Origin: Streptomyces sp. TLI_105
Lineage (GTDB): Bacteria > Actinomycetota > Actinomycetes > Streptomycetales > Streptomycetaceae
Direction of reading: 5' to 3'
Length of the DNA stretch: 64,000 nt
NCBI RefSeq assembly: GCF_900105415.1
Contig: NZ_FNSM01000001.1
Coordinates: 6,101,501 to 6,165,500, forward strand
Under the pieces are notes generated by a model, which worked only from the letters and a program-made list of their open reading frames with translations, was not told the origin of the DNA and did not search any database. Shown piece by piece: positions 2,774 through 11,448 of this stretch; the stretch's first letter is position 1, and each line of letters opens with the position of its first letter. The translations under genes were made by a program, and so were the position numbers.

Positions 2774-3649
2774 TCAGCCGGCGCGGGCCGCGAGGGAGAG
2801 GACCCGGTGGGCGCCCTCCACCACCGCCGCGTCGACGAAGCGGCCGTTCGGGAGGGCGAGGGCGCCCTGCCCGGTCGCGGCCGCCTCGACGACCTCACGG
2901 GCCGCGTCCACCTCCTCAGGGGTGGGGAAGTAGGCGCGTTCGATGACCGGGAGCTGACGGGGGTGGATGGCCGCCCGGCCGAAGAAGCCCATGGCCCGGC
3001 CCCGGGCGCAGCCGGCCGCCAGCGCTTCCAGGTCGCGGACGTCCGGGTGGACGGACTGGGCCGGCGGGGGGAGGGCGGCCGCGCGGGCCGCGACCACCAC
3101 GCGTCCGCGCGGCCAGTCGAGGCCGCCGTCCTCCCGCACCCCCAGGTCGGCGCGGAGGTCGGCCTCGCCGAGGGCGATGCCGCGGACGGAGGGATGGGCG
3201 GTGGCGATGGCGTAGGCGTGCTCCACGGCGAGGGCGTTCTCCAGGAGCGGATAGAGGGGCAGGCCCGGGGCGAGGCGGGCGATCCGGTGGATGTCAGTGG
3301 CGTGTGTCACCTTGGGTACACGGAGACCGCAGAGGCCGGGGAGGGGGGCCAGGGTGGGGATGTCGCGCGGGGTGTGGACGCGGACGTGGACCGGGACGGG
3401 GTGGACGTCCGCGAGGAGATCGGCCGTGGCGTCGAGGGCGTACGCCTTGCGCTGCGGGGCGACCGCGTCCTCCAGATCGACGATCACGACGTCGGCGCCG
3501 GAGGACAGGGCCTTGCGGACGACCTCGGGGCGGTCGCCGGGGGCGTACAGCCAGGTGAGGGGGGCGAGGGGGCGTGCCGGGGAGGGCGCGTCGGCGGGTT
3601 CGCCGGCACGCGTCCGTTCGTCCTCCGCGGGGCCGCTGAGGGGGCTCAT
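2774..3649 (-). CDS. CitE/HpcH-HpaI family CoA-ester lyase
   Basis: A 291-residue TIM-barrel protein of the citrate lyase beta / malyl-CoA lyase superfamily, which cleaves or forms beta-hydroxyacyl-CoA esters with a divalent metal. Visible family motifs are LYAPGDRPEVVRKAL (start), VIVDLEDAVAP (metal/CoA region), PLLENALAVEHAY, the GEADLRADLG segment, and AIHPRQLPVIE near the end. It is the last gene of a seven-gene operon. Its ATG overlaps the stop of the CoA-transferase gene (ATGA at 3646-3649). The pairing with a family III CoA-transferase suggests an acid is activated to its CoA ester and then cleaved, as in citramalate or itaconate catabolism. The actual substrate is inference. Confidence 0.85.
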   Translation of the reverse strand: MSPLSGPAEDERTRAGEPADAPSPARPLAPLTWLYAPGDRPEVVRKALSSGADVVIVDLEDAVAPQRKAYALDATADLLADVHPVPVHVRVHTPRDIPTLAPLPGLCGLRVPKVTHATDIHRIARLAPGLPLYPLLENALAVEHAYAIATAHPSVRGIALGEADLRADLGVREDGGLDWPRGRVVVAARAAALPPPAQSVHPDVRDLEALAAGCARGRAMGFFGRAAIHPRQLPVIERAYFPTPEEVDAAREVVEAAATGQGALALPNGRFVDAAVVEGAHRVLSLAARAG

Positions 3650-4884
3650 ACCGCTCCTTGCTCGCGGAGGGCGTCGATCTCGGCGGGGGTGAGGCCGAGT
3701 TCGGAGAGGACGGCACCGGTGTCGGCGCCGTGCGGCCGGCCGGCCCAGCGGATGGCGCCGGGGGTCTCGGAGAGGCGGAAGAGGACGTTCTGCATCTTGA
3801 TCGGGCCGAGTTCGGGGTCCTGCACCTCGGTCACGGTGCGGAGCGCCTGGTACTGGGGATCGTCCACGACGTCCCGGACGTCGTAGACGGGGGCGATGGC
3901 CGCCTCCGCCTTCTCGAAGGCCGCCATCGCCTCGTCGCGGGTGCGGCGGGCGATCCACGAGCCGACCGCCTCGTCGAGGACGTCCGCGTGCTCGGCCCGG
4001 CCCGTGCCGTCGGCGAACCACGGCTCGTCGATCAGTTCCGGACGGCCGACGAGCCGCAGCACCCGCTCGGCGATCGACTGGGCGGAGGTGGAGACGGCGA
4101 CCCAGGAGCCGTCGGCGGTCCGATAGGTGTTGCGCGGGGCGTTGTTGCGGGAGCGGTTGCCGGTCCGGGGCTGGACGTAACCGAGCTGGTCGTACCAGAG
4201 GGGGTGGGGTCCGATGACGGAGAGCATCGGTTCGATGATCGCCATGTCGACGACCTGGCCGCGTCCGGTCGTCGTCCTGGCGGTGAGCGCGGTCATCACC
4301 GCGTACGCCGTGGCGAGGGCGGCGATCGAGTCGGCGAGGCCGAAGGGCGGCAGCGTCGGCGGGCCGTCCGGCTCGCCGGTGATGGCGGCGAAACCGCTCA
4401 TCGCCTCGGCGAGGGTGCCGAAGCCGGGACGGTGGGCGTACGGCCCGAACTGGCCGAAGCCGGTGACCCGGGCCAGGACCAGACGCGGATTGACGGTGGA
4501 CAGCTCCTCCCAGCCCAGACCCCAGCGCTCCAGGGTGCCCGGCCGGAAGTTCTCCACGATCACGTCCGCGTCCGTGGCGAGGGCGAGGAGGGTGTCGCGG
4601 CCGCCCGGCGAGGACAGATCGAGGGTGATGGCCCGCTTGTTGCGGCCGAGGACCTTCCACCACAGGCCGATGCCGTCCTTGGCGGGGCCGTGGCCGCGGG
4701 ACGGATCCGGCTTGCGGGGATGCTCGACCTTGACGACGTCGGCGCCGAAGTCGCCCAGCATCATGGCCGCGAGGGGGCCGGCGAAGAGGGTCGCGAGATC
4801 CAGGACGCGCAGTCCGTGCAGGGGCGCCGTGGGGTTCTCGGGGGTTGTGGGGTCCGGCGGGGTGGCCGGGGCGTGGACGGTCAT
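3646..4884 (-). CDS. Family III CoA-transferase (CaiB/BaiF type)
   Basis: Moves CoA between carboxylic acids through an enzyme-bound aspartyl intermediate. At 412 residues it is of full family length. The N-terminal block LRVLDLATLFAGPLAAMMLG and GADVVKVEHP, the segment VIVENFRPGTLERWGL, and Asp185 in FGLADSIAAL fit the family, with Asp185 the likely nucleophile. Start and stop both overlap neighbours by four bases (ATGA with rbsK upstream and with the lyase downstream), so translation is probably coupled. The acid substrate cannot be read from the sequence. Confidence 0.9.
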   Translation of the reverse strand: MTVHAPATPPDPTTPENPTAPLHGLRVLDLATLFAGPLAAMMLGDFGADVVKVEHPRKPDPSRGHGPAKDGIGLWWKVLGRNKRAITLDLSSPGGRDTLLALATDADVIVENFRPGTLERWGLGWEELSTVNPRLVLARVTGFGQFGPYAHRPGFGTLAEAMSGFAAITGEPDGPPTLPPFGLADSIAALATAYAVMTALTARTTTGRGQVVDMAIIEPMLSVIGPHPLWYDQLGYVQPRTGNRSRNNAPRNTYRTADGSWVAVSTSAQSIAERVLRLVGRPELIDEPWFADGTGRAEHADVLDEAVGSWIARRTRDEAMAAFEKAEAAIAPVYDVRDVVDDPQYQALRTVTEVQDPELGPIKMQNVLFRLSETPGAIRWAGRPHGADTGAVLSELGLTPAEIDALREQGAV

Positions 4885-5801
4885 ACGGCGTCGGCCTCCA
4901 GGATGCCGGGGGAGCGGAAGGCGTCCTCGATCTCGACGCGGTACGGCATCGAGGTCGACGCGCCCTCGCGCCGGACGGAGAGCGCGGCGGCCGTCTGCGC
5001 CCAGGCCAGGGCCTCCGGGGCGGGACGGCCCTCGCCGAGGGCCACCGCGAGGGCGCCGACGAAGGTGTCGCCCGCTCCCGTGGTGTCCACGGCCCGGACC
5101 CGGGGCGCGGGCACGGCGACCGGCTCGGCGCCGCGCACCGCGTACAGGCTGCCGGCCGCGCCCAGCGTGACGACCACCTCGGGAACGTCCCGCAGCAGGG
5201 CCTGGGCGGCCTCGCGGGGGTCGGTGAGCCCGGTGAGCGCGGCGGCCTCGTGCTCGTTCGGCACCAACAGGTCGGTGGCGGCGAGGAGTTCCGGCGGAAG
5301 CGGCTGTGCGGGAGCGGGGGTGAGGACGGTGCGGACGCCGAGCCGACGGGCGGTGACGGCGCCCTCGACGACGACGGAGAGGGGGAGTTCGAGCTGGAGG
5401 AGCAGGGCGTCGGCGGTGCCGATGAGGGCCTCGTCGCCGTGGGTGAGGGAGGTGACGGTGCCGTTGGCGCCGGGGACGACGACGATCGCGTTGCCGCCCT
5501 CGTCGTCGACGACGACATGAGCGGTGCCGGAGGGGCCCTCGGCGGTGCGCAGGAGGTCGGTGTCCACCGCGCAGTGCTCCAGGGCGGAGCGGAGCCGTGG
5601 CCCGAAGTCGTCCGCGCCGACCGCGCCGATCATCGCCACCTCGGCGCCCGCGCGGGCGGCGGCGACGGCCTGGTTGGCACCCTTGCCGCCGGGGATCGTA
5701 CGGAAGGAGCGGCCGGTGACCGTCTCACCGAGGGCGGGGGTCCGCGGCACGTAGACGACGAGATCCATGTTCGTGCTGCCGAGCACGACGATGCTGGTCA
5801 T
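4881..5801 (-). CDS. rbsK: Ribokinase (PfkB family)
   Basis: Phosphorylates ribose (or a related pentose) to the 5-phosphate using ATP. The 306-residue protein has both PfkB signatures: the N-terminal GGKGANQAVAAARAG (from residue 38) and the C-terminal DTTGAGDTFVGAL, in which Asp245 is the expected catalytic base. The N-terminus IVVLGSTNMDLVVYV is typical of RbsK rather than fructokinases. It overlaps both neighbours by four bases in the ADPRH operon and would salvage ribose released by glycohydrolases. The exact sugar specificity is inferred. Confidence 0.9.
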   Translation of the reverse strand: MTSIVVLGSTNMDLVVYVPRTPALGETVTGRSFRTIPGGKGANQAVAAARAGAEVAMIGAVGADDFGPRLRSALEHCAVDTDLLRTAEGPSGTAHVVVDDEGGNAIVVVPGANGTVTSLTHGDEALIGTADALLLQLELPLSVVVEGAVTARRLGVRTVLTPAPAQPLPPELLAATDLLVPNEHEAAALTGLTDPREAAQALLRDVPEVVVTLGAAGSLYAVRGAEPVAVPAPRVRAVDTTGAGDTFVGALAVALGEGRPAPEALAWAQTAAALSVRREGASTSMPYRVEIEDAFRSPGILEADAV

Positions 5802-7471
5802 GGGCGTACTGCCTCCAGGTGTGTCAGTTCGGCCAGGGTGTCGAAACCGATGCCGTCGAAGGACGGCACCGAGGTCGCGAGCCGGTTCTTGAGAGGGGAG
5901 GTCCAGCGCTCCGGCAGCCGGTCCGGATGCCCGGCGAGCAGCCCGGCGAGCGAGCCGGCGGTGGCGCCGTTGGAGTCGGTGTCCCAACCGCCCGAGACCG
6001 CCGCGCAGACGGAGCGGGAGAAGTCGCCGTCGGCGTGGGTGAGGGCGGCGGCGAGCAGCGCGGAGTTGGGGACGGCATGCACCCAGTGGTACCCGCCGAG
6101 TTCGGCGTGCAGCCGGTCGACGACGGTGTCGAACTCGTCGGCGCGCGGGTGGGCGCGGGCGGTCTCGATGCCGAGGCGGACCGCCCCGGCGAGGCGCGAG
6201 CGCGGCGGGATCACCCCGAGGCCGGCGGCGAGCGCCTGGTGGACGTCGGCGGTGCCGGTCGCCGCGGTGGCGAGGGCGGCGGCGACGAACATGGCCCCGT
6301 AGACGCCGTTCGCGGTGTGCGTGAGCACCGCGTCCCGGTGCGCCTGCGCGGCGGCGGCCGCCGGGTCGCCCGGGTGGGTCCAGCCGTGGACGTCGGCCCG
6401 GATCTGGGCTCCGATCCACTCGCGGAAGGGGTTGCGGCGGACGGCGGTCAGCGGAGGCTCCACGCCGTCCAGGAGGTTGCGGTAGGCGACGCGCTCGGCC
6501 GTGAAGGTGCGGCCGGCGGGGAGCTCGTCGAGCCAGAGGCGGGCGACGTCGGCGGTGGTGAAGTCGCGGCCGTACCGCTGGAGGAGCAGCAGATTGAGGA
6601 GGGGGTAGTTGAGGTCGTCGTCCTCGGGCATGCCGTCGATGTTCTCGGCGAGGGAGGTGGCGGCGGAGCGGCGGTTCCAGGGATGCGCGGCGAGCAGCTC
6701 CGCAGGGACGCCGCGGGCGGTGAACCAGGTGGTGAGCGGCCAGTTGCCGGCGGCGCGGGCGAGGGCGCGGATGGCGGGGAGGGGGAGCTTCTCGACGGGC
6801 TTGCCGAGGAGACAGCCGACGGCGCGGCCGAGCCAGGCGGCGTGGAGACGGTTGCGGAGGGGGGTGCTCCCCGGCTTGGGCCTCGCGAGTCGGCCCGCTG
6901 CCCGGCCGGGTTGTGGGCCCGCGCCCTCGCCCTCGCCCTCGCCGGGCCGGCTTGTGGGCAGGCGTTCCGCGGGGCGAGGGGGGTCCCCCCTGTTCGAGCG
7001 AAGCCGAGAGCTTGGGGGAGGGTGGGCACCACCCCACGACGGCGCCGCACGTACGGGTGCGGGTTCGGGCGCGGAAGCCTGGGCGCGGCAAGGGGCGCCG
7101 TCCCGTGTGCCCACCCCTCCTGCCCCGGCGGGACGATTGCCCACACGGGGGTGGGCACCGGCCGCCCCCGCGCGGGCCGAGATCGGCGCGGGCGCGGGGA
7201 CCGCCGACGCCTGGATCTCGGGGAGGGTGGTGGGCTCCTCGGTCGAGAGGGGGGAGGGGAGGGTCGCCAGGGTGTCCAGGAGGTCTTCGGCCAGAGGGCG
7301 GAGGTCCGGGCGGGGGACCGGGGACGCCCCGGCCGTCTCCGGGGCGGGTGGGCCGCCCGCTGCCTTCCAGCGGGCCGCGAGGCCGCTCGCGTCGCGGCCG
7401 TCCTCCGCCGCCTGGCGGAGCTCGTGGCCCACCAGGTCCTCCGGCTGGACCCAGGTCAGGCGGAGGGTCAC
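5798..7471 (-). CDS. ADP-ribosylglycohydrolase family protein, paralogue 4, with repeat-derived linker
   Basis: DraG/ARH-fold hydrolase of 557 residues, starting with a GTG that overlaps the previous stop. Residues about 1-70 form a distinct N-terminal region. They are followed by about 140 residues of Pro/Ala/Gly/Arg-rich linker, part of which is encoded by a dispersed DNA repeat (6953-7029 and 7107-7158), and then the ARH domain. The C-terminal metal motif GGWDTDSNGATAGSLAG is intact and PEDDDLNYPLL may supply the N-terminal ligands. The usual GD of the first motif reads GRAVGCLLGKPVE, with Cys in place of Asp. It may release ADP-ribose or another ribosyl group. The substrate is unknown. 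Confidence 0.85.
   Translation of the reverse strand: MTLRLTWVQPEDLVGHELRQAAEDGRDASGLAARWKAAGGPPAPETAGASPVPRPDLRPLAEDLLDTLATLPSPLSTEEPTTLPEIQASAVPAPAPISARAGAAGAHPRVGNRPAGAGGVGTRDGAPCRAQASAPEPAPVRAAPSWGGAHPPPSSRLRSNRGDPPRPAERLPTSRPGEGEGEGAGPQPGRAAGRLARPKPGSTPLRNRLHAAWLGRAVGCLLGKPVEKLPLPAIRALARAAGNWPLTTWFTARGVPAELLAAHPWNRRSAATSLAENIDGMPEDDDLNYPLLNLLLLQRYGRDFTTADVARLWLDELPAGRTFTAERVAYRNLLDGVEPPLTAVRRNPFREWIGAQIRADVHGWTHPGDPAAAAAQAHRDAVLTHTANGVYGAMFVAAALATAATGTADVHQALAAGLGVIPPRSRLAGAVRLGIETARAHPRADEFDTVVDRLHAELGGYHWVHAVPNSALLAAALTHADGDFSRSVCAAVSGGWDTDSNGATAGSLAGLLAGHPDRLPERWTSPLKNRLATSVPSFDGIGFDTLAELTHLEAVRP
6953..7029 (-). repeat. Dispersed repeat copy A1, inside ADPRH paralogue 4
   Basis: Read on the minus strand, this 77-bp stretch begins GTGCCCACCCTCCCCCAAGC and matches 9937-10013 on the plus strand with about 6 mismatches. 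Runs of C and G around GCTC/GAGC can form a hairpin. In this gene it is translated in frame and contributes the segment with PPPSSRLRSNRGDPPRPAERL to the linker. Confidence 0.85.
7107..7158 (+). repeat. Dispersed repeat copy A2, deletion derivative with 10-bp terminal inverted repeats
   Basis: Starts GTGCCCACCC (7107-7116) and ends GGGTGGGCAC (7149-7158), a perfect 10-bp inverted repeat. The interior CGGGACGATTGCCCACA resembles the 3' part of the copy at 9937-10024 (CGGGACGATCGCCCACA). It therefore looks like the same element with its central C/G-run section removed. Confidence 0.7.
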
Positions 7472-8619
7472 CGGTCCCCGCTCGTCAGCGTCGCGAAGGC
7501 CGATTCATGGGCTCGGCGCGCTTCCGTGTCCCGGGCGAAGATCTCCCGGGCCACTTGGGACAGTGCCCTCGCCGGGGCGTGCAGGTCCAGGCGGCTCGCC
7601 TCCGCCACCTGTTTCGCCCACTCGGAGGGGACGGCCGGCTCGCCGTGCAGCGCGCCCACGAGCGCGCCCGCCATCGTGGCGATCGAGTCGCAGTCGCGGC
7701 CGTAGTTGACCGCGCCCAGGACCGTACGCCGGAAGTCGCCCTCGCCGACGAGCAGCATGCCGAGGGCGATGGGGAGTTCCTCGATCGCGTGGAGGCGGGA
7801 GGGGCGGCGGGCGCCCAGGGACGGCGCGCGGTAGTCGGGGCCGACCGTGTCGAAGGGAGCCACAGCCTTGCGGAGGGGGGTGAGGGCGGATTCGAAGTCC
7901 GTGTGGGCGGAGGCGACTTCGGCGACCGCCTCGATCGCCGCGCGCGTTCCGTCCTTCGCCAGGGCCAGGGCCGTCTCGACCACGGACGCCGGCGTGGCGT
8001 CCGGTGCGCAGGCCGCCGCGACCGCCGCCGCGAAGACACCCGCCGCCTCCCGGCCGTAGGAGGACTGGTGCGCGCCCGTCAGGTCGATCGCCTCGGCGTA
8101 GGCGGCCGCCGGGTGGGCGGCGTTGACCAGGCCGACGGGCGCCATGTACATCGCCGCCCCGCAGTTGACGACGTTGCCGTTGCCGGCCTCGCGCGGGTCG
8201 ACGTGGCCGTAGTGGAGCCGGGTCACGATCCACTTCTCGGCGAGGAAGATCCGCTGGAGGGGCAGCGCCTCGGCCTCCAGTTCCGGGATCCAGACGGGGG
8301 AGCCCATGAGTTCGGGGACGAGGTGGTCCGCGACCGCGTACGCGTCGAGGTGGCCGCGGACCTTCTCGTACACCCGGATCAGCGCGTGGGTCATCAAGGT
8401 GTCGTCGGTGACGTGCCCGTCGCCCTTGTGGTACGGCGCGATGGGGCGGGCGGTGCGCCAGTCGTCGCCGTTCCAGGGGCCGACGATCCCGGTGACGCGG
8501 CCGCCGTGGCGTTCCAGGATCTGCTCGGGGGTGTAGCCCTCGACGGGGCCGCCGAGCGCGTCGCCGACGGCGGCCCCGAGGAGGCTGCCGGTGATCCGGT
8601 CATCCAGTGTGGGTGTCAT
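7468..8619 (-). CDS. ADP-ribosylglycohydrolase family protein, paralogue 3 (intact metal motifs)
   Basis: A compact 383-residue ARH/DraG protein without the long linkers of its neighbours. The first motif GSLLGAAVGDALGGPVEGY, the metal-binding HVTDDTLMTHAL and the C-terminal NYGRDCDSIATMAGALVG carry all the acidic residues expected for a dinuclear metal site, so it is probably catalytically active on an ADP-ribosyl or ribosyl substrate. The ATG at 8619 is chosen because AGGTGGA lies 10 bases upstream; an in-frame GTG at 8634 is the alternative. Its 5' end overlaps the 3' end of paralogue 2 and its stop overlaps the start of paralogue 4. Confidence 0.9.
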   Translation of the reverse strand: MTPTLDDRITGSLLGAAVGDALGGPVEGYTPEQILERHGGRVTGIVGPWNGDDWRTARPIAPYHKGDGHVTDDTLMTHALIRVYEKVRGHLDAYAVADHLVPELMGSPVWIPELEAEALPLQRIFLAEKWIVTRLHYGHVDPREAGNGNVVNCGAAMYMAPVGLVNAAHPAAAYAEAIDLTGAHQSSYGREAAGVFAAAVAAACAPDATPASVVETALALAKDGTRAAIEAVAEVASAHTDFESALTPLRKAVAPFDTVGPDYRAPSLGARRPSRLHAIEELPIALGMLLVGEGDFRRTVLGAVNYGRDCDSIATMAGALVGALHGEPAVPSEWAKQVAEASRLDLHAPARALSQVAREIFARDTEARRAHESAFATLTSGDR

Positions 8620-10201
8620 GTCGGAATTGTCCACCTGGGGTGGCCGGTTCCGTGGCTCCGAGCAACCCGGCGAGTTCCACCAGGTCCGTACCCGCGAGCC
8701 GGGGCAGCGCGCAGCCCGCGAGCGTCCTGCACGCCTCGCGCCAGCTCACCGGGACCGAACGGCCGCCGCCCAGCGCGCCGGTGAGCGCGCCCGCGAGCGC
8801 CGGGGCCGAGTCGGCGACCCGGGAGAGGCAGGCGGCGGCCGGTACCGCCGCCGTCATCTCGCCCCGGGCGGCGGTGGCGAGGGCCAGGGCGACCGGGACG
8901 GTCTCGGCGGCGGCGATGCCGTAGCTGTAGACGTGGTCCACGATCTGGTGCTCCAGGAGCGGGACGAGCTCGAAGGCCGAATCGGCGGCCTGGGCCAGCT
9001 TCACGGCGTGACGGGCGTTGCGGCCGATCTCGGTGGCGGGAGGGAGTTCGGCGAGCGCCGCCGCGACGGCCTCGTCGACCGCCGCCCCGCCGAGGGCCGC
9101 GGCGACGGCCGCCGCCGTCGCCCGGGCGCCGTGGACGCCGTCGCCGTCCTGCGTGTACCGGGCGTCGAACTCGGCGAGTTCGGCGGCGGCGTGGGGATCG
9201 CCCGGGTGGACCAGGGCCAGGACGGCGGCCCGGACGCAGGCCGCGTCGTCGAAGTAGTGCGGGTTGTCGTGGCCCGTGGCGGGCGGGCGCAGGCCGGTGG
9301 CGAGGTTGCCGAGGCCCGCGCGCACCGAGATCCGGGCGCGGAGGGGGAGCACGGCCGACTCGACCTCGGGGGCGCGGTCGGCCGCGGCGGCGACCTGTCC
9401 GGCGAGGGCGTTCCAGGCGAGGTCGACGGCGGCGCGGAGCCGGCGGTCCTGGGGGAGGCCGGCGAAGACCGGGCCGGAGGCGGCGAGGACGGCCTCGGCG
9501 GTGAAGACCGCCCACTCGGCGTCGTCGGAGGGGCCGAGACGGAGGGGTTCGGGGGGCTGGTTGAGGGCGATGGGGACGGGGAGGGTGGTCGTGGCGTTCT
9601 GCTCGGCGAAGGTGTCGAGTTCGCGGGTGAGGCGGCGGGTCCATTCGGGCATGCGGGCGGCGCGGTGCCTCGCGGCGGGCCAGCCGGCGGCGTCGCCTGC
9701 GGCGATGCCGAGGAGCAGGCCCTCGACCGCGTCGCGGCCGGGGCGGGGCTCGCTCTGCGCGCCCGGCACCGGGGCCTCGTGGGCGCCGCCACCCCAGGAG
9801 CCGGTGCCGCGCACCGGGGCGGTGCCGTGGTCGGGGGCGGGGGCCTGGAGCGTACCGACCGCCGAGGTGCCGCCCGGCACCGGTGCAGGGTCCCGCAGGG
9901 CATCGGCCGCCGGGACGGTGCCCGGCATCGGGGGCTGTGCCCACCCTCCCCCAAGCTCTCGGCTTCGCTCGAGCAGGGGGGACCCCCCTCGCCCTGCGGG
10001 ACGATCGCCCACAGCGGGGGTGGCAGTCGGAGCGCCCACAGCTGGTGTGGCGCCCGCAGTGCCCACAGCCGGTGCGGCACCCGCAGTGCCCACAGCCGGT
10101 GCGGCACCCGTAGCGCCCACAGCCGGTGCGGCACCCGTAGCGTCCGCAGCTGGTGCGGCGCCCGTAGTCGTCGGGGCCGGCGTCGTCGGGTCCGGGTTCA
10201 T
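8600..10201 (-). CDS. ADP-ribosylglycohydrolase family protein, paralogue 2, with repeat-rich N-terminus and degraded motif
   Basis: A 533-residue protein. The first 150 or so residues are low complexity, made of five 9-residue repeats of the ATGAAPAVG type and a segment encoded by the dispersed repeat at 9937-10024. The remainder is an ARH domain beginning VEGLLLGIAAGDAAGWPAA. The N-terminal ligands appear as PSDDAEWAVF. The C-terminal motif reads LSRVADSAPALAGALTG, where active paralogues have GRDADTxxA, so one metal-binding Asp is replaced by Val. This suggests weak, altered or absent catalysis, perhaps a binding or regulatory role. Its ATG overlaps the stop of paralogue 1 (TGATG). Confidence 0.85.
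   Translation of the reverse strand: MNPDPTTPAPTTTGAAPAADATGAAPAVGATGAAPAVGTAGAAPAVGTAGATPAVGAPTATPAVGDRPAGRGGSPLLERSRELGGGWAQPPMPGTVPAADALRDPAPVPGGTSAVGTLQAPAPDHGTAPVRGTGSWGGGAHEAPVPGAQSEPRPGRDAVEGLLLGIAAGDAAGWPAARHRAARMPEWTRRLTRELDTFAEQNATTTLPVPIALNQPPEPLRLGPSDDAEWAVFTAEAVLAASGPVFAGLPQDRRLRAAVDLAWNALAGQVAAAADRAPEVESAVLPLRARISVRAGLGNLATGLRPPATGHDNPHYFDDAACVRAAVLALVHPGDPHAAAELAEFDARYTQDGDGVHGARATAAAVAAALGGAAVDEAVAAALAELPPATEIGRNARHAVKLAQAADSAFELVPLLEHQIVDHVYSYGIAAAETVPVALALATAARGEMTAAVPAAACLSRVADSAPALAGALTGALGGGRSVPVSWREACRTLAGCALPRLAGTDLVELAGLLGATEPATPGGQFRHDTHTG
9937..10024 (+). repeat. Dispersed repeat copy B, inside ADPRH paralogue 2
   Basis: Starts GTGCCCACCCTCCCCCAAGC on the plus strand and ends near GGGGGTGG, an imperfect inverse of its beginning. 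It is about 92% identical over 77 bp to copy A1 at 6953-7029. Because the host gene is on the minus strand, the element is read here on the opposite strand to copy A1 and contributes the segment with GRGGSPLLERSRELGGGWA. Confidence 0.85.
10034..10168. repeat. 27-bp minisatellite, five tandem copies, in ADPRH paralogue 2
   Basis: Units begin at 10034, 10061, 10088, 10115 and 10142, each built on GCCCACAGCCGGTGCGG followed by CACCCGYAGY. The period is a multiple of three, so the repeat encodes a 9-residue peptide repeat (ATGAAPAVG-like) near the N-terminus of the minus-strand protein. Copy number can vary without breaking the frame. Confidence 0.9.
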
Positions 10202-11196
10202 CAGGTCTCGTCCTCCGGGGTGAGGAGGTCCGCGACGTCCAGGACGTGGTAGCCGCGCATGGAGGGGAGACAGCTGCCGCTGACCGGGGCGATGGCCGCG
10301 GCCCAGTCGGGCGGGATCGCGCCCGTGCCGCCCGCCGCGCCGGCCAGCGCGCCCGCCACCGCCGCCGTCGTGTCGGCGTCGCGGCCCATGTTGACGGCGG
10401 TGAGGACGGCCGTGCGGAAGTCGCCCCGGGCCGCCGCGAACGCGCCGAACGCCAGGCCCACCGCCTCCGGGGCCAGGTCCGTCCAGGGGTAGCCGCCGAT
10501 GACGACGGCCGAGCGGACCTGGCGTTCGCGGGTGAGCGGGTCCGGTTGGACGCGCTGTGCCGCGACGACCGCGCGGCGCAGCGAGCGGGCCGTCCAGGAG
10601 TCCATCGGGACGACCGACAGGGCCGCCGCGATCACCGACGTGACGGTGGCTCCCGTCATCGCCGCCGCCACACCCGCCGCCACCGCCTGGCCGCCGTAGA
10701 TGCCCTCACCGTCGTGGCTGACGCTGCCGTCGATCGCGACCAGCCGGGCCGCCTCCGCCGGGCGGCCCGCCGCGAACACCCCGAAGGGCGCCGCGCGCAT
10801 CGCGAGGCCGTCGCTCCACGCGTGGCGGTGCTGGGCGGAGATGGGGGCCGCCAGGCCCCGGCGGAGGTTCTCCAGGGTGCCGCGCTCGGAGAAGCCCGCG
10901 CCGCGGAAGGGGCCTTCGTCGAGGTCGGCGATCCAGTGGTGCCAGGCCCGTTCGACGTGGTGGACGGTGAGGGCGGAGCCGTGCCGGGCGAGGAGCAGGC
11001 CGGAGAAGATGGCGTACTCCGTGTCGTCGGTGCCCGCCGGGCTGTCCGTCACGAAGCCTTCGATGCGGCCCCAGCGGCGGCGGATCTCGGAGGGCCGCAT
11101 GTTCTCCGCGGGCGCGCCGAGCGCGTCGCCGACGGCGAGGCCGAGGAGTGCTCCTCTCGCCCGTTCACGCGTGTCGCAGGCCGTGCTGGTCACCAT
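10201..11196 (-). CDS. ADP-ribosylglycohydrolase family protein, paralogue 1 (first gene of operon)
   Basis: A 331-residue ARH/DraG family hydrolase with canonical motifs: ALLGLAVGDALGAPAE, the metal ligands in AGTDDTEYAIFSG, and GRDADTTAAVAGALAGA near the C-terminus. It should bind two metal ions and hydrolyse an N- or O-linked ribosyl bond. The ATG at 11196 is preferred over the in-frame GTG at 11229 because GAGGAAGGGG lies six bases upstream. It heads a co-directional operon of seven genes with overlapping junctions, divergent from the VIT-type transporter gene. Confidence 0.9.
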   Translation of the reverse strand: MVTSTACDTRERARGALLGLAVGDALGAPAENMRPSEIRRRWGRIEGFVTDSPAGTDDTEYAIFSGLLLARHGSALTVHHVERAWHHWIADLDEGPFRGAGFSERGTLENLRRGLAAPISAQHRHAWSDGLAMRAAPFGVFAAGRPAEAARLVAIDGSVSHDGEGIYGGQAVAAGVAAAMTGATVTSVIAAALSVVPMDSWTARSLRRAVVAAQRVQPDPLTRERQVRSAVVIGGYPWTDLAPEAVGLAFGAFAAARGDFRTAVLTAVNMGRDADTTAAVAGALAGAAGGTGAIPPDWAAAIAPVSGSCLPSMRGYHVLDVADLLTPEDET

Positions 11197-11216
11197 CTCG
11201 CGCCCCTTCCTCGACG

Positions 11217-11238
11217 GGGGCGCCGACACCGGCGCCCC
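11217..11238 (-). promoter_or_regulatory. Leader hairpin in front of the ADPRH operon
   Basis: Arms GGGGCGCCG (11217-11225) and CGGCGCCCC (11230-11238) with a 4-nt loop lie 21-42 bases upstream of the first operon gene on the minus strand, just before its ribosome binding site. It could affect translation initiation or transcript stability; no ligand-binding fold is recognised. Confidence 0.35.
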
Positions 11239-11448
11239 GATGCCTGGATCTGTGCCACCACGGGCCGCGAACTCGCCGAAGAAACGTCTCTGTCACCCGG
11301 CTGACATCCCGCCAGGTTGGGTTGCCCTCACTGAGGCGGGCCTTAGTAAGTACGGCCTGCCTTGCTGGCGCGCCCCTTACAGCGGGCGTATTTTCGACGT
11401 GTTGGGGGCGGCGGGTGCATCCCGGCCCGCCGGAACGAGGGGAGAGCC

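What the first reader, a model, noticed from the sequence alone, without database searches (positions are those of the whole stretch)
2774..11196. Operon of four ADP-ribosylglycohydrolase paralogues with ribokinase, CoA-transferase and CitE-like lyase
Seven minus-strand genes are joined by 1-35 base overlaps, so they form one translationally coupled unit. Four DraG/ARH-type hydrolases plus ribokinase imply release and phosphorylation of ribose from one or more ribosyl compounds. A family III CoA-transferase plus a CitE-like lyase imply activation and cleavage of an organic acid, possibly the aglycone side. To my knowledge this combination has no assigned pathway. It may be a salvage or catabolic route for an N-ribosylated or ADP-ribosylated acid, or for a modified nucleoside.
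Basis: partly seen in the sequence, partly recalled or inferred. Interest (0 to 1): 0.75.

Follow-up and report, generated by a model that had tools for sequence, protein, structure and literature searches.

The report
Predicted sugar-acid conjugate breakdown operon
A Streptomyces operon of four enzymes usually annotated as ADP-ribose removers, a ribokinase and two CoA-acid enzymes appears to be the importer-less form of a gene cluster that other actinobacteria keep beside a sugar importer, so it probably breaks down an unknown sugar-acid compound rather than reversing ADP-ribosylation.

Summary
The seven genes are real, in the stated place, overlapping by 1, 20, 4, 4, 4 and 4 bases (35 instead of 20 if arh3 starts at an upstream GTG). 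The order arh1-arh2-arh3-arh4-(rbk)-caiB-citE holds in 19 of 20 other Streptomyces regions fetched; rbk is absent from 4 of the 19. Outside Streptomyces, 20 of 25 inspected genomes with an ARH3 orthologue carry all seven genes in this order behind two sugar-type permeases and a binding protein (LacI regulator seen in 19 of the 20). In 13 of the 20 an amylase-fold/FGE fusion gene lies between rbk and caiB. One Streptomyces also keeps importer genes beside the operon. I read the window operon as an importer-less version of a carbohydrate-conjugate catabolic cluster: ARH-fold enzymes cut ribosyl or similar bonds, ribokinase makes ribose-5-phosphate, and CoA-transferase plus lyase degrade an acid part. 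ARH3/ARH4 look like the core; ARH1 usually travels with ARH2, whose metal motif is degenerate in all 15 sequences aligned. The substrate is unknown. Nucleoside salvage and ADP-ribosylation reversal are less likely, not excluded. No pathway paper was found in ten searches of an open-access library.

The parts
10201..11196 (-). arh1, ADP-ribosylglycohydrolase-fold protein, 331 aa, both metal motifs present (TDDT, DADT)
8600..10201 (-). arh2, ARH-family protein, 533 aa with about 150 aa of N-terminal extension before the Pfam domain; first Asp of the C-terminal DxD[T/S] motif replaced in 15 of 15 sequences aligned
7468..8619 (-). arh3, ARH-family protein, 383 aa from ATG 8619 (388 aa from GTG 8634); motifs TDDT and DCDS
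5798..7471 (-). arh4, 557 aa: N-terminal piece of about 100 aa, low-complexity linker, C-terminal ARH domain; motifs EDDD and DTDS
4881..5801 (-). rbk, ribokinase (TIGR02152 above cut-off)
3646..4884 (-). caiB, family III CoA-transferase, 412 aa, in a tree branch of ARH-linked CaiBs
2774..3649 (-). citE, CitE/RipC-like acyl-CoA lyase, 291 aa
11197..11448 (.). divergent intergenic region between arh1 and the VIT-like gene; conserved blocks, one holding TGTCAGCCGGGTGACA in the window

Best explanation
The operon encodes the cytoplasmic enzymes of a catabolic pathway for a conjugate of a furanose sugar (most likely ribose) and an organic acid. In other actinobacteria the same genes follow a LacI-family regulator and an importer with two permeases and an SBP_bac_1 binding protein, so the substrate is probably an imported small carbohydrate conjugate; the window operon has no importer genes beside it. 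Shown here: gene content, order, overlaps, conservation, importer linkage in relatives and metal-motif state. Inferred: (1) metal-dependent ARH3 and ARH4, and ARH1 with a non-catalytic or altered partner ARH2, hydrolyse O- or N-furanosyl bonds and release ribose; (2) ribokinase, or another kinase where rbk is missing, makes ribose-5-phosphate for the pentose phosphate pathway; (3) the family III CoA-transferase turns the released hydroxy acid into a CoA thioester, and the CitE-like enzyme cleaves it to a short acyl-CoA plus an oxo acid; (4) in clusters that have them, the amylase-fold protein pre-cleaves another glycosidic bond and an esterase frees the acid.
Against: No substrate, product or expression data. 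Importers of this class (called CUT1 from memory; no ATPase gene was noticed in the clusters) also carry non-sugars. Of the window and the 19 ordered Streptomyces regions only G014 showed importer genes near caiB, and no unlinked importer was looked for. The amylase-fold protein had no match at E 1e-20 in the Streptomyces of the class sample. rbk is missing from 4 of 19 Streptomyces regions and from 4 of the 7 named non-Streptomyces clusters, so ribose is not proven to be the sugar. One named Streptomyces (L174) keeps arh4-rbk-caiB-citE without arh1 to arh3; G001 has arh2 but no close caiB, its assembly being 79 percent complete. CaiB relatives also sit in a different cluster without ARH genes. 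The ARH-linked CaiB branch (93) is not starred. ARH activity on furanosides without ADP is inferred.
Confidence: 0.58

Rival explanations
1. Nucleoside salvage: the ARHs act as nucleosidases on a modified nucleoside, ribokinase takes the ribose, and the CoA enzymes degrade an acid made from the base. This would resemble the E. coli yegTUV operon and the staphylococcal ARH-permease-ribokinase set.
For: ARH beside a PfkB-type kinase and a predicted nucleoside or nucleobase transporter occurs in E. coli yegTUV and in a staphylococcal element (passages of PMC3637587). An ARH4-like gene is followed by a ribokinase gene in a distant actinobacterium, G329. YegU's best match among the operon's ARHs is ARH3, 24 percent over 356 aa.
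Against: The linked importers have an SBP_bac_1 binding protein and two BPD_transp_1-type permeases (the others by similarity), not nucleoside or nucleobase permeases. No nucleobase-degrading gene was recognised among the seven. An amylase-fold partner in 15 of 25 inspected clusters (model) suggests glycosides. YegV is only marginally similar to the operon's ribokinase.
Confidence: 0.17
2. Reversal of ADP-ribosylation: the ARHs remove ADP-ribose from proteins, nucleic acids or small molecules, and the other genes recycle the products.
For: DraG/ARH family by Pfam and, for ARH4, by modelled fold. Published lists place SCO2028-SCO2031 and SCO2028-SCO2030 among Streptomyces DraG/ARH homologues (passages).
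Against: Importer, LacI and amylase-fold neighbours in relatives. No ARH reaches the DraG or Tri1 equivalog cut-off. ARH2 lacks a metal ligand. SCO2028 and SCO2030 had no detectable activity on U-alpha-ADPr (passages of PMC13036486; one substrate, and the match of those tags to these genes is inferred from recalled gene order). No ADP-ribosyltransferase or NUDIX domain was found among the seven.
Confidence: 0.13
3. Two unrelated modules in one transcript: the ARH-ribokinase set handles a riboside, while caiB-citE handle an acid from another source.
For: Close CaiB relatives occur with IclR, cyclase, MmgE/PrpD and amidohydrolase genes and no ARH. In the two Microbacterium loci L209 and L211 and in G218, caiB-citE lie ahead of the regulator, apart from the ARH genes.
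Against: caiB is in the cluster in 23 of 25 inspected genomes, the two others ending at a contig edge; ARH-linked CaiBs group together. In G582 the CaiB branches elsewhere, which would fit a second recruitment, but one ARH-linked clade is not rejected (AU p 0.165).
Confidence: 0.12

Closest known systems
E. coli yegTUV operon (transporter, ARH, PfkB-type kinase; GntR-family regulator GgaR)
   Same: ARH gene overlapping a PfkB-family sugar kinase gene, with a transporter and a dedicated repressor
   Different: One ARH, an MFS nucleoside-type transporter, no CoA-transferase or CitE; YegU is 24 percent identical to ARH3 and YegV only marginally similar to the ribokinase; substrate also unknown
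Staphylococcal set ADP-ribosylglycohydrolase, permease, ribokinase (SERP2216-2218)
   Same: ARH plus ribokinase plus importer (passages of PMC3637587)
   Different: Cytosine/purine/uracil-type permease, one ARH, no acid module named in the passage
DraG / ARH1 / ARH3 ADP-ribosylhydrolases
   Same: Pfam family; in ARH1, ARH3 and ARH4 both acidic metal motifs; modelled fold of ARH4
   Different: Below the DraG and Tri1 equivalog cut-offs; importer context in relatives; ARH2 degenerate
Itaconate degradation lyase RipC and family III dicarboxylate CoA-transferases
   Same: CitE matches RipC and the PDB acyl-CoA lyase beta chain best; CaiB resembles succinate-glutarate and hydroxymethylglutarate CoA-transferases among others
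   Different: Scores far below equivalog cut-offs (124.4 against 375; 236.6 against 750); no hydratase in the operon

Membership tests
DraG/ARH ADP-ribosylhydrolase | Pfam PF03747 and ARH fold | tested here: met
   Pfam for all four; fold modelled for ARH4 only, first matches 2cwc, 1t5j and DraG entries
DraG/ARH ADP-ribosylhydrolase | Two acidic metal-binding motifs in ARH1, ARH3 and ARH4 | tested here: met
   TDDT/DADT, TDDT/DCDS, EDDD/DTDS in the window; for ARH4 D82-D84 and D295-S298 invariant in all 17 sequences aligned; that these residues bind metal is recalled from the family
DraG/ARH ADP-ribosylhydrolase | Two acidic metal-binding motifs in ARH2 | tested here: not met
   First Asp of DxD[T/S] replaced in 15 of 15 aligned ARH2 sequences
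DraG (TIGR02662) or Tri1 (NF041672) equivalogs | Curated NCBIfam cut-off | tested here: not met
   Best 72.4 against 337.05 for DraG and 48.3 against 490 for Tri1, both arh1
DraG/ARH ADP-ribosylhydrolase | Hydrolysis of an ADP-ribosyl bond | not testable with these tools
   Literature only: SCO2028 and SCO2030 inactive on U-alpha-ADPr (passages)
Ribokinase | TIGR02152 cut-off and near end-to-end match to solved ribokinases | tested here: met
   308.9 against 299.65; 6znx over residues 4-293 of 306; the PRK11142 cut-off of 341 is not reached (271.4)
Family III CoA-transferase | PF02515 with the Asp region aligned | tested here: met
   419.9 bits; LADS region aligned with solved members; the catalytic role of this Asp is recalled
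Itaconate RipC / citramalyl-CoA lyase | NF038242 cut-off | tested here: not met
   124.4 against 375
Importer-linked carbohydrate cluster | LacI, two permeases and SBP_bac_1 gene adjacent to the enzyme genes | tested here: not met
   No importer hit near the operon in the window, where VIT-like and gltB genes lie upstream; present in relatives
yegTUV-type ARH-kinase-transporter operon | Transporter in the operon | tested here: not met
   No transporter domain among the seven proteins

The most novel reading that the evidence does not exclude
A branch of the ADP-ribosylhydrolase fold has become a set of metabolic glycosidases: ARH3/ARH4, and ARH1 paired with a pseudo-enzyme ARH2, dismantle an imported furanosyl-acid conjugate in a 12-gene actinobacterial pathway (LacI, importer of three genes, four ARHs, ribokinase, an amylase-fold/FGE fusion, CoA-transferase, CoA-lyase) for which I found no published description. 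Streptomycetes mostly keep it without linked importer genes.
Probability: 0.4. Interest if true: 0.75.

Novelty: new variant of a known kind. Interest (0 to 1): 0.6.

Why it matters
Streptomycetes carry many ARH-family proteins that are counted in print as a sign of a lively ADP-ribosylation metabolism (PMC5087735, passages). If four of them belong to a sugar-acid catabolic operon, that count is inflated and the fold has an under-recognised metabolic role. The importer-linked relatives make the substrate findable: the binding protein can be screened directly, and the CoA-lyase product gives the acid. It also gives a testable context to an unannotated amylase-fold/FGE fusion protein and to a conserved degenerate ARH.

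Tried and rejected
Literature: the ten searches that ran cover open-access PMC papers only; no listed paper is about this gene combination. Seven papers were seen as passages (PMC13036486, PMC9411070, PMC5087735, PMC5036795, PMC10819704, PMC3637587, PMC10434189), the others as listings. PMC5036795 names SCO2028 only in a primer name and a cloning sentence, apparently a slip for SCO2038.

Substrate: I looked for a clue in the second context of the CaiB clade (amidohydrolase, cyclase, MmgE/PrpD, FAD enzyme). It does not name an acid, and the window genome and seven other Streptomyces have no close homologue of that amidohydrolase (matches at E 1e-30 in 3 of 8, best 31 percent). The caiB-citE gaps of L269, L320 and L322 were read and gave nothing usable. 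The amylase-fold model matches a broad set of TIM-barrel hydrolases, so no glycoside hydrolase family is claimed. Independent recruitment of caiB in G582 was considered; the AU test does not require it. A comparison of the phosphate-loop region was dropped as inconclusive; several of the six paralogues in it were read on a wrong strand. Protein searches with arh3 and arh1 show nearly only Streptomyces among the names given in the best 120 of each.

Counts; 20 of the 25 other Streptomyces genomes with a close arh2 were fetched. G012 is the one outside the 19: its genes lie in four places of one 9 Mb contig, possibly a misassembly. 17 of the 19 have lgt-dsbA-trpA on one side and vit1-gltB on the other, L112 has only vit1-gltB (contig end), L113 neither. 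arh2 in L104 was not called but lies there; arh3 of L106 shows as two pieces in different frames; 25 of the 26 non-Streptomyces genomes with an ARH3 orthologue were inspected (G125 not fetched). G171 shows no caiB in the 1.8 kb left before its contig end, and G181's contig ends inside arh4; G065's begins at arh3, so its importer is unseen. The LacI gene of G250 (L269) would lie beyond the stretch. The tree used 69 of 144 CaiB sequences, by the quick method. L178 and L196 (Streptomyces, contig ends) were labelled other and not used in the tree.
Full report
WHAT IS THERE. The window comes from a streptomycete (its closest proteins bear Streptomyces names). Between lgt and a VIT-like gene lie seven minus-strand genes at 2774-11196, overlapping by 1, 20 (or 35), 4, 4, 4 and 4 bases. 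Pfam and NCBIfam name four PF03747 proteins, a ribokinase, a family III CoA-transferase and a CitE-like lyase. No Rfam family reaches its gathering score in the window.

CONSERVATION IN STREPTOMYCES. A close arh2 was found in 26 of 37 same-genus genomes and in none of the 24 other genomes of that search. Of 20 fetched regions, 19 show arh1-arh2-arh3-arh4-caiB-citE in order (arh2 of L104; arh3 of L106 in two frames); rbk is present in 15 of the 19. Seventeen lie between lgt-dsbA-trpA and vit1-gltB; L112 reaches a contig end, and L113 (G014) lies in another neighbourhood. The twentieth (G012) has the genes in four places of one contig. Nine of the 11 genomes without a close arh2 also lack a close caiB; G010 keeps a reduced, partly broken set, and G032's contig begins inside arh4. 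In the phylum samples the same eight of nine listed same-genus genomes carry close arh4 and caiB. Against full unity: L174, a named Streptomyces, keeps arh4-rbk-caiB-citE but shows no arh1 to arh3, and G001 (79 percent complete) has arh2 without a close caiB.

THE DECISIVE CONTEXT. Searching with an alignment of CaiB orthologues brought in named loci in which ARH3, ARH4, CaiB and CitE lie with two permease genes and a solute-binding protein gene: Actinorhabdospora filicis, Rugosimonospora africana (a LacI gene would lie beyond the stretch held), Okibacterium fritillariae, Naasia aerilata and Microbacterium resistens, and two further Microbacterium loci in which CaiB-CitE precede the regulator and the ARH order is arh3-arh4-arh1-arh2; rbk was found in three of these seven. 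Pfam confirms LacI, BPD_transp_1, SBP_bac_1 and, in L192 and L202, an esterase for the genes scanned. An ARH3 search of 296 genomes of the class gave 48 with an orthologue at E 1e-50, 22 of them Streptomyces. I inspected 25 of the 26 others. All seven genes stand in the Streptomyces order in 20 of 25. CaiB is present in 23 of 25; of the two others one contig ends 1.8 kb after arh4 and the other inside it. Permeases and binding protein are beside the cluster in 24 of 25; the exception begins at a contig start. In 13 of the 20 an additional gene sits between rbk and caiB; two of the other five clusters also have it. Eighteen of the 25 genomes are in group f21, which I take to be Micromonosporaceae from named homologues; that naming is an inference. 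Streptomyces G014 carries binding-protein and permease genes directly upstream of arh1 (hits in L113); the window and the other 18 ordered regions showed no such hits. The importer-less operon in the window is most simply a reduced form, although the direction of change was not tested.

THE FOUR ARHs. They are about 30-32 percent identical where long alignments exist (229-365 aa; arh2-arh3 and arh3-arh4 align only over short stretches). ARH1, ARH3 and ARH4 keep both acidic motifs in the orthologues read, apart from fragments. ARH2 lacks the first Asp of the C-terminal motif in 15 of 15 aligned sequences. In the non-Streptomyces clusters, ARH1 and ARH2 are present together or absent together, and ARH3 and ARH4 are always together; so I read ARH3/ARH4 as the core and ARH1/ARH2 as an optional pair. 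Exceptions outside that set are G010 (arh1 without arh2, broken operon), L174 (arh4 alone) and L190 (an ARH1/ARH2-like pair without ARH3/ARH4). The ARH4 domain, which has no PDB hit by sequence, models as an ARH fold (pLDDT 88.6).

THE ACID MODULE. CaiB matches several CoA-transferases, all below equivalog cut-offs; CitE is nearest RipC-type lyases. In a tree of 69 CaiBs, 25 of the 27 labelled ARH-linked lie together (support 93, not starred). Of the two exceptions, G582 is not significantly apart (AU p 0.165), and L190 has only the ARH1/ARH2-like pair about 8 kb away. Closely related CaiBs elsewhere sit with IclR, PF04199 cyclase, MmgE/PrpD and an amidohydrolase, without ARH. So the acid step is modular.

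MECHANISM. Shown: content, overlaps, order, importer linkage in relatives and motif state. Inferred: furanosyl hydrolysis by the ARHs, ribose phosphorylation, CoA activation of the acid and its C-C cleavage. Neither the sugar nor the acid is identified; ribose is favoured only by the ribokinase, which is itself sometimes absent.

RIVALS. Nucleoside salvage is favoured by E. coli yegTUV (PMC10819704, passages; sequence) and by the staphylococcal set (PMC3637587, passages), but the importer type and the amylase-fold partner argue against it. ADP-ribosylation reversal is favoured by the family name. Published lists call SCO2028-SCO2031 uncharacterised (PMC9411070; PMC5087735 lists SCO2028-SCO2030), and SCO2028 and SCO2030 were inactive on one uracil-linked substrate (PMC13036486). 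That those tags correspond to these genes rests on recalled gene order, not on a sequence comparison.

VERDICT. A real, conserved operon for which I found no published pathway. It is a new variant of ARH-kinase operons, of moderate to good interest because the importer-linked relatives make the substrate findable.

Noticed in passing
window 6992-7018 (minus) and 9948-9974 (plus): A dispersed repeat with 67 copies in this genome at up to 3 mismatches (control 0) lies inside the coding frames of the arh4 linker and the arh2 N-terminal extension, outside the Pfam domains.
   Followed up: partly
window 11197-11448: Conserved blocks between arh1 and the VIT-like gene: an AGCAAGGNAGGC...ACTTAC-like block that resembles an iron box (recalled, not tested), and TGTCAGCCGGGTGACA nearer arh1.
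   Followed up: no
L202 6679-8682 and orthologues in L192, L201, L203, L268-L281, L283: Unannotated fusion of a TIM-barrel amylase-like fold with an FGE/EgtB-like domain; many of the named homologues are from Micromonospora.
   Followed up: partly
L148-L151, L167-L171, L205-L208: A second recurrent actinobacterial cluster with CaiB and, in most, CitE: IclR, PF04199 cyclase, MmgE/PrpD, allantoinase-like amidohydrolase, in some an FAD enzyme and an MFS transporter, no ARH; substrate unknown.
   Followed up: partly
L101, L115, L116, L117 (G012): The operon's genes lie in four separate places of one 9 Mb contig, perhaps a misassembly.
   Followed up: no
L072 (G010), L324 (G589), L174: Reduced or broken versions between the same flanks: no arh2 or rbk hit and only part of citE in G010; arh3 and arh4 matched only in part in G589; no arh1 to arh3 hit in L174.
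   Followed up: no
L067 9214-11348 (G329): An ARH4-like gene followed by a ribokinase gene (46.6 percent identical to rbk) in a distant actinobacterium; the overlap rests on a rough gene call.
   Followed up: no
L070 9556-10623 (window genome, elsewhere): A further ARH4-like paralogue (46-48 percent), two genes from one that looks like glycerate kinase (by eye); similar genes in G107, G151 and G162.
   Followed up: no
window 5798-7471, N-terminal about 100 aa of ARH4: An N-terminal piece without Pfam match that has counterparts in the f21-group and Microbacterium clusters.
   Followed up: no
L190 164-2189 (Nocardiopsis): An ARH1/ARH2-like pair about 8 kb from a CaiB-CitE pair; no ARH3/ARH4 hit in the stretch.
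   Followed up: no
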